64,000 bases of DNA, from positions 1 through 64,000 of the forward strand of contig CANRIG010000007.1 in NCBI GenBank assembly GCA_947630595.1, read 5' to 3'. Below are positions 158 to 4,463 of the stretch, piece by piece. The notes under the pieces were generated by a model. It had not been told where the DNA came from. It made no database searches and saw only the letters and a list, made by a program, of their open reading frames with translations. This DNA is from an uncultured Lachnospiraceae bacterium. GTDB taxonomy: Bacteria > Bacillota > Clostridia > Lachnospirales > Lachnospiraceae. A program made the translations under genes and the position numbers. Positions within the stretch are counted from its first letter, which is position 1. Each line of letters starts with the position of its first letter.

Positions 158-187
158 TTGACAGATTATTTTACCATATGTTACAAT
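158..187 (+). promoter_or_regulatory. Putative sigma-A promoter TTGACA-N18-TACAAT for the ABC-F leader
   Basis: TTGACA 158-163, TACAAT 182-187. Confidence 0.6.
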
Positions 188-215
188 TAGGCCAATAAAT
201 GAGAGGGGTGAAAAG

Positions 216-227
216 ATGAGGAGATAA
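216..227 (+). CDS. Putative 3-codon leader uORF (M-R-R-stop)
   Basis: ATG AGG AGA TAA preceded by purine-rich SD GAGAGGGGTG (201-210). Confidence 0.45.
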   Translation: MRR

Positions 228-360
228 TTTACTTTTGATTGCATGAAGATAAGATGATTTCATGTTGCCAAAAGTGGATTATGTTCTCATAACCGCTCTC
301 TTTTTTGTTGATAAAAATAAAAGATCGCAGGGGCTCCCTGTATGGTTATGATGCGTAATG

Positions 361-392
361 GAACTGTTTGGTGACGAACGGTTCTTTTTTTT
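361..392 (+). terminator. Intrinsic terminator / attenuator immediately upstream of the ABC-F ORF
   Basis: GAACTGTTT(361-369)/GAACGGTTC(376-384) stem with GU wobbles, loop GGTGAC, then T8 (385-392). Confidence 0.7.
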
Positions 393-419
393 GTGGAACC
401 GCAGAAGGGAGAGAAGGCA

Positions 420-1946
420 TTGGCACAGATACTTGTGGATCATTTGACGTTTGCCTATGAAGGCAGCTTTGACCATATTTTTGAGGATGTCTCCTTTTCC
501 GTTGATACGAACTGGAAGCTTGGCTTTTTAGGACGAAACGGAAAAGGAAAAACCACATTTTTAAACCTGCTGCTGGGAAAGTATGAGTACAGCGGAAGCA
601 TTACCGCATCCGCCGCATTCGACTATTTTCCCTATCCGGTCACACAGGGGCAGCTGCAGCTTCCGGCCGCGGATATTCTGGATCAGTGGAAAGCGGGATG
701 CGAGCCGTGGCGCGTCCTCGTGGAGCTGGATCAGCTTCGGGAAAGCGCGGAGGTTTTGTACCGCCCGTTTCGCACGTTAAGCCCCGGGGAACGCACGAAG
801 GTCATGCTGGCGGCGCTGTTTTCCGGTGAGAATGATTTCCTGCTGATCGATGAGCCGACGAATCATCTGGATCGGGAGTCCAGAGAGAACGTAAAAGATT
901 ATCTGACATCGAAGAAGGGCTTTATTCTGGTATCCCACGACCGGGATTTGCTGGATGCCTGCACGGATCATGTGCTGGTGCTAAACCGGAAAAGCATTGA
1001 CGTGCAGAACGGCAATTTTTCTGTCTGGTGGGAAAATAAACAGCGCAGAGATCAGTTTGCGCGTGCGGAGAATGAAAAGCATGTAAAAGAAATCGGCAAG
1101 CTGAAACAGTCCGCGGCGCAGAAGGCGCAGTGGGCAGACCGAAACGAACGGACGAAGATCGGGTTTGATCCTGTGAAAGAGCACGACCGTTCCCATGGCG
1201 CCCGCGCATACATCGGGGTGAAAACGAAAAAGGCGCAGAGCCGGGTATCGCAGATGCGGAAGAGGATCGAGCGGGAGATTGAGGAAAAGGAAGGACTGCT
1301 TGCCGACCTGGAGGAACCGGTGGATTTGAAACTCATGCCCTTAAGGCACCACCGGGAACGTCTGATTCATATCCGCGAGTTTACCGCCGCCTATGAGGAC
1401 TCGGCCCGCCCGGCGTTTTCCAATCTAACCTTTGACCTGATGCAGGGCGAGCGGATGGCGCTTCACGGGGAAAACGGGTGTGGAAAATCCACTTTAATCA
1501 AGCTGATTTTGCAGAAAGCAGGCGTTGGGGAAGCGGAACTTCCGGTGAGAACATCCGGCATCTGCGAGACGGCGGCCGGGCTGGCGATTTCTTACGTCAG
1601 TCAGGACACTTCCATGCTGAGGGGCAGCATTCAGGCCTTTTGCAGGGCGCGCAGACTGGATGAAAGCCTGTTCTGCGCAATTCTGCGGCAGCTCGATATG
1701 GAACGGGGGCAGTTTCTGAAAAATATGGAGGATTATTCCGAAGGCCAGAAAAAGAAGGTGCTGATCGCGGCGAGTCTCCTGACGCCTGCGCACGTGTATA
1801 TCTGGGATGAGCCGCTGAACTATATCGACGTTTTTTCGCGAATGCAGATCGAGAAGCTGCTGCTCACATACCAGCCGACGATGCTGTTTGTGGAGCACGA
1901 TGTGCGATTCCGCGAACAGATTGCCACGAGGACGGTAGAATTTTAA
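420..1946 (+). CDS. ABC-F family ATPase, Lsa-like ribosomal protection protein
   Basis: Two ABC domains (GRNGKGKTT, LSPGERTK, DEPTNHLD; GENGCGKST, YSEGQKKK, DEPLNYID); no TM segments; TTG start at 420 with upstream GGGAGAG; ORF opens at GTG 393. Confidence 0.85.
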   Translation: MAQILVDHLTFAYEGSFDHIFEDVSFSVDTNWKLGFLGRNGKGKTTFLNLLLGKYEYSGSITASAAFDYFPYPVTQGQLQLPAADILDQWKAGCEPWRVLVELDQLRESAEVLYRPFRTLSPGERTKVMLAALFSGENDFLLIDEPTNHLDRESRENVKDYLTSKKGFILVSHDRDLLDACTDHVLVLNRKSIDVQNGNFSVWWENKQRRDQFARAENEKHVKEIGKLKQSAAQKAQWADRNERTKIGFDPVKEHDRSHGARAYIGVKTKKAQSRVSQMRKRIEREIEEKEGLLADLEEPVDLKLMPLRHHRERLIHIREFTAAYEDSARPAFSNLTFDLMQGERMALHGENGCGKSTLIKLILQKAGVGEAELPVRTSGICETAAGLAISYVSQDTSMLRGSIQAFCRARRLDESLFCAILRQLDMERGQFLKNMEDYSEGQKKKVLIAASLLTPAHVYIWDEPLNYIDVFSRMQIEKLLLTYQPTMLFVEHDVRFREQIATRTVEF

Positions 1947-2196: not shown

Positions 2197-2847
2197 ATGA
2201 AACTTGAGAAAATGGATGCTTTTTTTACTGTACGTTTGAACGGATATGACGAGCATATGATGACGGAAATCGCTGGCGCAAAAGAGTTTTACCCCTATAC
2301 GGCAGCCTTGCTGCCGCTGGAACATGATGTAAATGTGCTGGATTTGGGCTGCGGTACAGGACTTGAACTTGAATATTACTTTGGCCTGAACGGTGGGGCG
2401 TCGGTGACAGGGATTGATCTGTCGCCCGATATGCTGGCGGCGCTGAAACGGAAATTTTCAGGCCGTAAAATGAAGCTGATCTGCGGTTCTTATTTCGATG
2501 TCCCTTTTGAGGCAAACTGCTTTGACGCCGCCGTATCCGTCGAATCGCTTCATCACTTCACCGCCGCACAAAAGTTGAAGCTGTATAAAAAACTGAATAC
2601 CGCACTGGCCAACAACGGATATTTCGTTCTGACAGATTATTTCGCGGAGTCGGAAGAAGCAGAGCATCTTTACCTTTCTGAACTGGAAAGGCTGAAAAGC
2701 GAACAGGGGCTTGGGCCTAATGCGTTTTATCATTATGACACGCCCCTGACCGTGGAGCATGAAATTGAGGTTTTGAAGAAAGCAGGCTTTTCGGATGTGC
2801 GAATTATGCGAAACTGGGGAGCCACTTACACCATACTGGCACGCTGA
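2197..2847 (+). CDS. Class I SAM-dependent methyltransferase
   Basis: VLDLGCGTGLELEYY motif I, GIDLSPDML. Confidence 0.85.
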   Translation: MKLEKMDAFFTVRLNGYDEHMMTEIAGAKEFYPYTAALLPLEHDVNVLDLGCGTGLELEYYFGLNGGASVTGIDLSPDMLAALKRKFSGRKMKLICGSYFDVPFEANCFDAAVSVESLHHFTAAQKLKLYKKLNTALANNGYFVLTDYFAESEEAEHLYLSELERLKSEQGLGPNAFYHYDTPLTVEHEIEVLKKAGFSDVRIMRNWGATYTILAR

Positions 2848-2970: not shown

Positions 2971-3594
2971 CTATTTCGCATTCGCCGTGCAGCACACCGG
3001 AGCGTCAAAGCTCGGGTTGAACGCATAGAAGTTCTTTGCGTCGAGCTGTTCCTGGACGGAGCGCAGTGCTTCGCCGAATCGCTGGAAGTGCACGACCTCG
3101 CGGGCGCGCAGGAAGCGGATCGGGTCGGCAACCTCCGGGTCTTTTACGAGCCGGAGGATGTTGTCGTAGGTGGTGCGGGCTTTCTGTTCTGCAGCCAGAT
3201 CCTCATGCAGATCGGTGATCGGGTCGCCCTTGCTCTGAAATTCGCAGGCATTGAACGGTACACCGCCAGCGGCCTGCGGCCAGATGCCGACCGTGTGATC
3301 AACATAATACGGGGCAAAGCCTGCTTTTTCAATTTCCTCCATGGACAGACCGCGGGTGAGCTGGTGGATGATCGTGGCCACGATTTCCAGATGTGCGAGC
3401 TCCTCCGTGCCGATGTCGGTGAGCGTGGCGGCCGCGATGCGGTTCGGAGCCGTGTAGCGCTGGGAGAGATAACGCATGGAAGCGCCCATCTCGCCGTCCG
3501 GCCCGCCGTACTGGCTGATGATAATCTGCGCCAGCTTCGCGTTCGGAGCCGTGATGTTTACCGGATATTCCAGTCTTTTTTCATAATTCCACAT
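2971..3594 (-). CDS. cotJC: Spore coat protein CotJC, manganese-catalase family
   Basis: MWNYEKRLEYPV..., ferritin-like EELAHLE / REVVHFQRF motifs; operon with CotJA/B. Confidence 0.9.
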   Translation of the reverse strand: MWNYEKRLEYPVNITAPNAKLAQIIISQYGGPDGEMGASMRYLSQRYTAPNRIAAATLTDIGTEELAHLEIVATIIHQLTRGLSMEEIEKAGFAPYYVDHTVGIWPQAAGGVPFNACEFQSKGDPITDLHEDLAAEQKARTTYDNILRLVKDPEVADPIRFLRAREVVHFQRFGEALRSVQEQLDAKNFYAFNPSFDAPVCCTANAK

Positions 3595-3597
3595 AAG

Positions 3598-4242
3598 TCA
3601 GCATTTCCCTCCTTCCCATGGCCACGGCTGGCTGACCCATTTCCAGTTTGAGCTTCCGCAGTCGCATGCTTCTTCGCCGGCCTGCGTCAGAACCAGCGGG
3701 CCGTAGAGTTTTTCGTATTCTTTGAGCGCCAGTTCGCGTTTTTCGTTGTGCGCGAGAAAATACTGCATGGCGTTCTGGCAGTCCGGATGGGTGTCGAGAT
3801 AGAGCGCTGCTTCGTAGGCGGCAAAGCTCACTTCGTCGATATATTTGAGCAGCTCCCCGCGGCTGCCGGTGGGAATATCCGCGATGCACGAGGTTTCCGT
3901 GCGCGCAGACGTCTCATTACAGCAGTTTCCGTTTGTCTGAACTGTTGGTGCGGCAACCCGGTAATTCACGGCCGGAGTTGTCTGGCAGTTTGTCGGGGTC
4001 TCGCTGCAGCGACTTCCATTTGTCTGAACTGCCGGTGCGGCAGCCCGGTAATTCACGGCCGGAGCCGTTGCCTGGCAGTTTGTCGGCGTCTCACTGCAGC
4101 AGCTTCCCTGCCGGGATAACGGCATTTCGCTGCCACAGCTGTTCTGCCGGGACACCGGCATTTCCGCTCCGCAGTTTGCTGTGCAGTTTCCGCGCATGCC
4201 GCGCATATTCGTGTTCATATAAGAGTTACAAGTACGGTTCAC
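3598..4242 (-). CDS. cotJB: CotJB-like spore coat protein with Cys-rich repetitive N-terminal extension
   Basis: C-terminal LLKYIDEVSFAAYEAALYLDTHPDCQNAMQYF is CotJB-like; GTG start 4242 with AGGAGG upstream, overlapping the CotJA stop (GTGA). Confidence 0.75.
   Translation of the reverse strand: MNRTCNSYMNTNMRGMRGNCTANCGAEMPVSRQNSCGSEMPLSRQGSCCSETPTNCQATAPAVNYRAAAPAVQTNGSRCSETPTNCQTTPAVNYRVAAPTVQTNGNCCNETSARTETSCIADIPTGSRGELLKYIDEVSFAAYEAALYLDTHPDCQNAMQYFLAHNEKRELALKEYEKLYGPLVLTQAGEEACDCGSSNWKWVSQPWPWEGGKC
3915..4105 (-). repeat. About 90-bp imperfect tandem duplication (SETPTNCQ..TAPAVNYRAAAPAVQTNGxxC)
   Basis: Two 29-30-residue units in the translation. Confidence 0.8.
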
Positions 4243-4463
4243 CTGCAGTTTCCTCCTTTCCCGCAGAACGGTTTGTGAAGCGACGGGAACACCGTACCGG
4301 CCTGAAGGCCGCGGCACGGGTCATAAGTCGCTTCCCACTGCTGATATGGCACATAGGCCATGGCCAGCGGTGCGTCGGCCACGGTCATATAATGATAGAT
4401 TTCGCTGACACGGCTGTTGACAGCATTGCTGCAGCCGCAGTCAGGGCTTTGCATTTCTGACAT
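4239..4463 (-). CDS. cotJA: CotJA-family spore coat associated protein
   Basis: LAMAYVPYQQWEATYDPCRGLQAGTVFPSLHKPF. Confidence 0.85.
   Translation of the reverse strand: MSEMQSPDCGCSNAVNSRVSEIYHYMTVADAPLAMAYVPYQQWEATYDPCRGLQAGTVFPSLHKPFCGKGGNCR

What the first reader, a model, noticed from the sequence alone, without database searches (positions are those of the whole stretch)
158..420. ABC-F gene with complete attenuator leader: promoter, 3-codon uORF (ATG AGG AGA TAA) and premature terminator
Seen: TTGACA-N18-TACAAT (158-187), uORF MRR with its own SD (216-227), and a 9-bp-stem/T8 intrinsic terminator (361-392) ending exactly where the Lsa-like ABC-F ORF opens. An upstream arm TCATAACC (287-294) is complementary to GGTTATGA (344-351), and GTTC (283-286) to GAAC (361-364) within the terminator stem, giving a candidate anti-terminator. 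Known: ABC-F resistance genes (e.g. Listeria lmo0919, B. subtilis vmlR) can be induced by ribosome-targeting antibiotics through leader attenuation. Inference: this gene is antibiotic-inducible, and such a short uORF means stalling probably occurs at initiation or the first codons. The uORF overlaps an SD-like AGGAGA; a second mini-ORF (MKIR, 243-257) is an alternative sensor.
Basis: partly seen in the sequence, partly recalled or inferred. Interest (0 to 1): 0.72.

Follow-up and report, generated by a model that had tools for sequence, protein, structure and literature searches.

The report
Drug-sensing leader of resistance gene

Summary
The leader is real and strongly conserved. Of 79 ABC-F homologues, 67 carry the same promoter, SD, three-codon uORF (MRR and other basic variants) and hairpins. 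Free RNA folds into one long hairpin (201-300) that buries SD, start and stop of the uORF and ends in a U-run: a candidate first terminator (T1) and an anti-antiterminator. Blocking the uORF frees 264-296, which pairs with 342-375 as an antiterminator against the second terminator (T2, 361-392). That pairing is kept in 93% of cells, with 32 double-change cells, more than in any of 500 shuffles. In about 20 relatives T2 is missing; most keep its antiterminator strand, and in several that strand lies in a predicted hairpin over the ABC-F SD. MKIR is not an ORF: its ATG belongs to a stem. The ABC-F starts at TTG 420, not at 393. The mechanism is of the vmlR/cplR type (uORF-mediated attenuation), but Rfam has no matching family above threshold (the Bacillus ncr1575 model scores 33.7 against 60). 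Induction by a drug, the stall site and T1 termination are inferred, not shown.

The parts
158..187 (+). sigma-70-type promoter TTGACA-N18-TACAAT with extended -10
   Evidence: 11/12 match; 42 of 44 aligned leaders have a promoter of at least 10/12 upstream of the SD
201..210 (+). uORF Shine-Dalgarno GAGAGGGGTG; 201-208 is also the 5' arm of P1, paired with 293-300
   Evidence: near-invariant in A1 and A2; P1 91.8% of cells paired
216..227 (+). sensing uORF ATG AGG AGA TAA (MRR)
   Evidence: three-codon uORF in nearly all of 86 unique leaders: MRR 37, MRK 14, MKR 10, MRI 9, MKK 5; stop TAA 80, TAG 4, TGA 2
201..300 (+). anti-antiterminator hairpin: P1 201-208:293-300, P5 216-222:284-290, P2x 224-237:269-282, P3 242-247:259-264
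   Evidence: MFE -41.9 kcal/mol for 195-306; 94.8% of cells paired, 16 double-change cells, 0/500 shuffles; slid versions 45-63%
301..306 (+). U-run directly after the long hairpin: candidate terminator T1 (or pause site)
   Evidence: at least 4 T in the next 8 nt in 42/44 leaders, at least 5 in 32/44, against 9% of linker octamers
264..296 (+). 5' strand of the antiterminator
   Evidence: pairs with 342-375; formed only when the uORF is blocked
342..375 (+). 3' strand of the antiterminator (264-275:363-375 with a bulge at 366, 278-284:353-359, 287-296:342-351)
   Evidence: 92.9% of cells paired, 9 pairs and 32 cells with changes on both sides (0-3 of 500 shuffles reach this); slid versions 34-53%
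361..392 (+). intrinsic terminator T2: stem 361-370:375-384, U8 385-392
   Evidence: 98.4% of cells paired, 13 double-change cells, 0/500; U-tract with at least 5 T in 44/44
406..414 (+). ABC-F Shine-Dalgarno (AGAAGGGAG region)
   Evidence: sequence; conserved in A2
420..1946 (+). Lsa-like ABC-F ribosome protection protein, TTG start, 508 aa
   Evidence: NCBIfam ribo_prot_ABC_F 425 bits, cut-off 380; Lsa_all 602 bits, cut-off 750; best PDB hit Lsa(A) 7nhk, E 1e-108

Best explanation
This is a uORF-sensing attenuator of an Lsa-like ARE-ABCF gene. Without drug, the ribosome leaves the three-codon uORF quickly. The new RNA then folds into a long hairpin that buries the uORF, its SD and the antiterminator strand 264-296, so transcription ends at the U-run after that hairpin (T1) and, for polymerases that pass it, at T2. 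When a drug (by analogy a lincosamide, streptogramin A or pleuromutilin) holds a ribosome on the uORF, the 5' arms of the hairpin are covered and T1 cannot form. The freed 264-296 captures 342-375, including the upper 5' arm and loop of T2, before T2's 3' arm is made; the polymerase reads on and the protection protein is made. Shown here: the parts, their conservation and covariation, and the computed switch. Inferred: drug, stalling, T1 activity and the kinetic win of the antiterminator over T2.
For: The same leader stands before 67 of 79 ABC-F homologues. Two mutually exclusive structures are each supported: the hairpin 94.8% paired with 16 double-change cells, the antiterminator 92.9% paired with 32 double-change cells; T2 98.4%. 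Lengthened or altered uORFs have matching 3' strands: L095 and L104 (AGCACC:GGTGCT) and L108 (ATGCGG:CCGCAT); given the consensus partner instead, L104 and L108 lose about 12 and 6 kcal/mol. Folding at nt 377: antiterminator helix AT3 0.02 when free, 0.87-0.88 with the uORF blocked, above 0.5 in 43/44 leaders. The uORF keeps basic residues through Arg codon changes (AGA, AGG, CGA, CGG, CGC). A covariance model finds the leader in 40 of 299 genomes sampled from the family, nearly always before an ABC-F. Known analogue: vmlR uORF(MIN), where uORF translation is needed for induction and a natural MRK variant works, though less well (PMC9226507); cplR uORF MR[I/M] (PMC10201436).
Against: At equilibrium, once the T2 3' arm exists, T2 (0.71) beats AT3 (0.24) even with the uORF blocked, so antitermination of T2 must be kinetic. 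Hairpin helices P2x and P3 hardly vary, so their covariation is weak. No transcript, terminator or drug data exist for this organism. T1 could be a pause site and not a terminator.
Confidence: 0.85

Rival explanations
1. Same uORF attenuator, but with T2 as the only working terminator; the U-run at 301-306 is a polymerase pause that gives the ribosome time, as at the pause sites in the vmlR leader.
For: vmlR has pauses and a single terminator (PMC9226507); the run is only T4-T6 in most leaders.
Against: About 20 leaders have no T2, and their U-run after the long hairpin is always T5 or longer (mean 5.8 against 5.2), as expected if it terminates.
Confidence: 0.35
2. The leader regulates mainly translation: hairpins hide the SD of the ABC-F gene and a stalled ribosome frees it.
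For: In most T2-less relatives the antiterminator strand TTTGGC[AG] sits just before the ABC-F SD, within a predicted SD-covering hairpin in at least six (L094, L105, L110, L127, L137, L145).
Against: The window and most relatives keep a strong T2 with a U-tract (U8 in the window).
Confidence: 0.15
3. A constitutive structured 5' UTR with an ordinary terminator read through at a fixed rate; no drug sensing.
For: No expression data.
Against: Two mutually exclusive covarying structures, and a uORF whose SD, start, stop and basic residues are kept, are not expected of a passive leader.
Confidence: 0.04
4. The RNA binds a ligand or protein directly (riboswitch-like) and the uORF is incidental.
For: High conservation of the hairpin.
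Against: The most conserved bases are explained by pairing or by the uORF and SD; the apical loop varies freely in length and sequence; no Rfam riboswitch hit.
Confidence: 0.03

Closest known systems
Bacillus subtilis vmlR leader (Rfam RF02452 ncr1575 appears to be this leader; the link is my inference from its MIN* uORF)
   Same: three-codon uORF inside a long anti-antiterminator hairpin, alternative antiterminator, intrinsic terminator, ABC-F gene of the lincosamide/streptogramin A/pleuromutilin type
   Different: uORF MIN against basic MRR-type; here a U-run follows the anti-antiterminator directly (possible second terminator); sequence does not reach the model's threshold (33.7 bits, gathering 60)
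Clostridioides difficile cplR leader (PMC10201436)
   Same: three-codon uORF MR[I/M], very close to MRR/MRI here; transcription and translation attenuation combined
   Different: different ABC-F subfamily; there the terminator stem itself holds the gene's SD, here terminator and SD are separate and only in some relatives is T2 replaced by an SD-covering hairpin
Enterococcus faecalis lsa(A) leader (uORF MAGN, PMC10201436)
   Same: Lsa-type ABC-F with an upstream uORF
   Different: different uORF; leader structure not compared here
Listeria lmo0919/vgaL, staphylococcal vga(A), streptococcal msrD, Streptomyces are5sc/tiaA leaders
   Same: uORF-dependent attenuation of ARE-ABCF genes
   Different: other uORFs; RNA structures not compared here; msrD responds to macrolides through elongation arrest (PMC9226507, PMC10314930 abstract)

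Membership tests
uORF-mediated attenuators of ARE-ABCF genes (vmlR/cplR type) | short uORF with its own SD upstream of an ARE-ABCF | tested here: met
   67 of 79 homologues; 86 unique leaders, nearly all with three-codon uORFs
uORF-mediated attenuators of ARE-ABCF genes (vmlR/cplR type) | mutually exclusive anti-antiterminator, antiterminator and terminator | tested here: met
   pair counts and constrained folding
uORF-mediated attenuators of ARE-ABCF genes (vmlR/cplR type) | drug-dependent read-through and ribosome stalling on the uORF | not testable with these tools
   needs Term-seq, reporters, toeprinting
Rfam RF02452 ncr1575 | score at or above the gathering threshold of 60 bits | tested here: not met
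   33.7 bits, E 0.0017 on a 281-base search
NCBIfam Lsa family (NF000167) | score at or above the curated cut-off of 750 | tested here: not met
   601.9 bits, E 1e-180
NCBIfam ribosomal protection-like ABC-F (NF000355) | score at or above the curated cut-off of 380 | tested here: met
   425.5 bits
NCBIfam ribosomal protection-like ABC-F (NF000355) | protects the ribosome from antibiotics | not testable with these tools
   nearest solved relative is Lsa(A), 7nhk

The most novel reading that the evidence does not exclude
An undescribed family of dual-checkpoint leaders: one hairpin is both terminator (T1) and anti-antiterminator, and one antiterminator strand can work on two interchangeable outputs (terminator T2 or an SD-covering hairpin). 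The start of helix P2 lies 3-4 nt after the uORF stop in three-, four- and five-codon uORFs, and the last sense codon is usually Lys or Arg; so the sensed event may be a ribosome held at the end of the uORF ([K/R] codon in the P site, stop in the A site, leading edge at 237, the end of the ACTTTTG arm) and not at the start codon as proposed for vmlR. The constant spacing could also follow from the hairpin alone.
Probability: 0.3. Interest if true: 0.65.

Novelty: new variant of a known kind. Interest (0 to 1): 0.52.

Why it matters
It suggests that a widespread gut-anaerobe lineage of Lsa-like resistance genes is held silent until a ribosome drug arrives, so susceptibility tests without inducer may miss it. 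The many natural variants of one leader (with and without T2, uORFs of three to five codons, other ABC-F classes or other genes downstream) form a ready comparative set for asking how short uORFs sense early-elongation drugs and how the same RNA switch is rewired from transcription to translation control.

Tried and rejected
(1) First model of the repressed state with a small hairpin 276-283:288-294 (P4): folding shows that it forms only when the uORF is blocked; in free RNA the same bases pair with the uORF strand. (2) MKIR mini-ORF as second sensor: rejected. (3) GTTC:GAAC as antiterminator core: replaced by the longer pairing. (4) Start-codon against stop-codon footprint: both release the antiterminator equally in silico, so folding does not decide the stall site. 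(5) Presence on plasmids, phages or viral contigs: none found. (6) Post-T2 hairpin 379-384:396-401 resembling vmlR SL-4: most of the gap-free cells pair but many relatives lack it; left open. (7) Homology with ncr1575: architecture alike, score below threshold; undecided. (8) Papers: five searches found no description of this leader in Lachnospiraceae; the library lacks most subscription journals.

Full report
Setting. The window is G000:C7, a 3.3-Mb assembly. Its nearest named relatives are rabbit-gut Lachnospiraceae MAGs, so I take it for a Lachnospiraceae genome (inference). The gene at 420-1946 encodes a 508-aa ABC-F protein: 425 bits against the NCBIfam ribosomal-protection ABC-F model (cut-off 380), 602 bits against the Lsa model (cut-off 750, not met), nearest solved structure Lsa(A) 7nhk. 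I call it Lsa-like.

Observation. Corrections: the T2 stem has 10-11 pairs; the ORF starts at TTG 420, where homologues align, not at GTG 393; the MKIR ATG is one arm of a stem.

Conservation. Reading upstream of 79 ABC-F homologues, 67 carry the same leader; several of the other 12 have recognisably different uORF leaders (L109, L113, L116: MFNR/MINR; L114, L115: MKNISCK/MRNISCK). Consensus core: GAGAGAGGTGAAAAGATGAGRAGATAATTTACTTTTGATTRCATGAA-(variable)-TTCATGTTGCCAAAAGTGGATTATGTTCTCATAACCTCTCTTTTTT. Of 44 aligned full leaders, 42 have a promoter of at least 10/12 just upstream; shuffles reach this in 1.6%. Among 86 unique leaders the uORFs are MRR 37, MRK 14, MKR 10, MRI 9, MKK 5 and rarer ones; the stop is always kept (TAA 80, TAG 4, TGA 2) and Arg at codon 2 uses five codons, including nine CGN cases, some of which break a base pair. 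This argues for selection on the peptide as well as on the RNA, though A-to-G changes in the stop codon also keep the pairing.

Structures. (a) Free RNA 195-306 folds into one hairpin of -41.9 kcal/mol: P1 (SD 201-208 with 293-300), P5 (uORF 216-222 with 284-290), P2x (224-237 with 269-282, 14 pairs), P3 (242-247 with 259-264). On 44 sequences 94.8% of cells pair, with 16 double-change cells (0/500 shuffles reach this); slid versions pair 45-63%. Two five-codon uORFs (L095 MSSTK, L104 MSSTR) and L108 (MRK, with Arg written CGG) have matching changes in the 3' strand. (b) Antiterminator 264-275:363-375, 278-284:353-359, 287-296:342-351: 92.9% paired, 9 pairs and 32 cells with double changes (shuffle means 5.0 and 11.6), slid versions 34-53%. 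(c) T2: 98.4% paired, 13 double-change cells. The shuffle control does not correct for relatedness; the slid control keeps it, and the margins are large.

Switch. With RNA ended at nt 377, the antiterminator helix next to T2 has mean probability 0.02 in free RNA and 0.87-0.88 when the uORF region is blocked, above 0.5 in 43 of 44 leaders. Once the T2 3' arm is present, T2 is favoured at equilibrium (0.71 against 0.24), so antitermination needs the antiterminator to form first and displacement to be slow. This is plausible, since T2 would have only 2-3 free bases at the foot of its 5' arm, but it is not shown.

T1. The long hairpin is followed at once by a U-run in nearly all leaders (42/44 with at least 4 T in 8; at least 5 in 32/44 against 9% of linker octamers). 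A crude scan classed 25 of 77 leaders as lacking T2; about 20 truly lack it (L061, L084 and L126 have one that the scan missed). T1 runs in that class are T5-T7, mean 5.8, against 5.2 elsewhere. Of 21 such leaders examined, 17 keep the antiterminator strand TTTGGC[AG] or TTGGC[AG] close to the ABC-F SD, and in at least six a local hairpin covers the SD. So the same antiterminator strand seems to serve a terminator in some relatives and an SD-covering hairpin in others.

Distribution. A covariance model from 53 cores finds the leader in 40 of 299 genomes of the family, in 18 family members (own included) plus two weak hits among 392 of the order, and, apart from the own genome, in none convincingly among 399 of the phylum. 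It was not found on plasmids, phages or viral contigs. Downstream is nearly always the Lsa-like ABC-F; exceptions are other ABC-F classes (L147, L157, L162) and complete leaders before a metallophosphoesterase (L121), a GNAT (L123) or a P-loop kinase-like gene (L124). The kinase and GNAT follow the ABC-F in several relatives, so L123, L124 and L148 look like losses of the ABC-F from that operon.

Comparison. The principle is that of vmlR (uORF MIN, anti-antiterminator with the uORF inside, antiterminator, terminator; natural MRK variant functional but weaker; PMC9226507) and cplR (uORF MR[I/M]; PMC10201436). Rfam ncr1575, whose consensus holds AUG AUU AAC UAA and which I take for the vmlR leader, matches the window at 33.7 bits, below its threshold of 60; an above-threshold ncr1575 hit, L173, stands before an Lsa-like gene with uORF MIS. 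This is therefore a new variant of a known kind, not a member of ncr1575 by the curated test.

What stays open. Which drugs induce; whether the ribosome stops at the start codon or at the end of the uORF (the helix P2 begins 3-4 nt after the stop in uORFs of three, four and five codons, which hints at the end, but the hairpin geometry alone could explain this); whether T1 terminates.

Noticed in passing
L098, L099, L102, L074, L077, L080 (and kinase only in L046, L047, L069, L112), downstream of the ABC-F: The ABC-F is followed by a P-loop kinase-like gene (weak match to PRK06761, no Pfam hit) and a GNAT acetyltransferase; in L124 and L123 the leader stands directly before the kinase or the GNAT, and in L148 the ABC-F is truncated. 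Possible drug-inducible extra resistance functions. The window lacks both genes in its first 8 kb.
   Followed up: partly
L121:1500-2900: Complete leader with T2 before a calcineurin-like phosphoesterase, with no ABC-F in the 1.5 kb downstream.
   Followed up: partly
L147, L157, L162: Related leaders (uORFs MSR, MINR, MKK) before ABC-F proteins of another class (23-25% identity to the window protein).
   Followed up: partly
L109, L113, L116: Sister leaders with uORFs MFNR/MINR and a different inner stem (GATTTGG:CCGAATC by eye).
   Followed up: no
L014, L016, L019, L020, L114, L115: More distant Lsa-like genes with longer uORFs (MYNFSC, MFQFSC, MIVFSC, MEIISRK, MKNISCK, MRNISCK) whose last codons seem to lie in a stem.
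   Followed up: no
L175 about 1500-1800 (minus strand): ncr1575-like leader with uORF MIY and a terminator before an MFS transporter in another Bacillota genome.
   Followed up: no
L053 about 1120-1250: Two tandem leader copies joined by a run of N; could be a scaffolding artefact.
   Followed up: no
window 328-340 and 406-414: CTCCCT (334-339), kept in the close clade, could pair with the ABC-F SD (AGGGAG) in free RNA; possible translational layer.
   Followed up: partly
window 2197-2847: SAM-dependent methyltransferase gene of unclear family 250 nt after the ABC-F.
   Followed up: no
window 2971-4463 (minus): CotJ-like spore coat genes (identified by eye); the middle ORF carries a Cys/Ser-rich repetitive N-terminal extension.
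   Followed up: no
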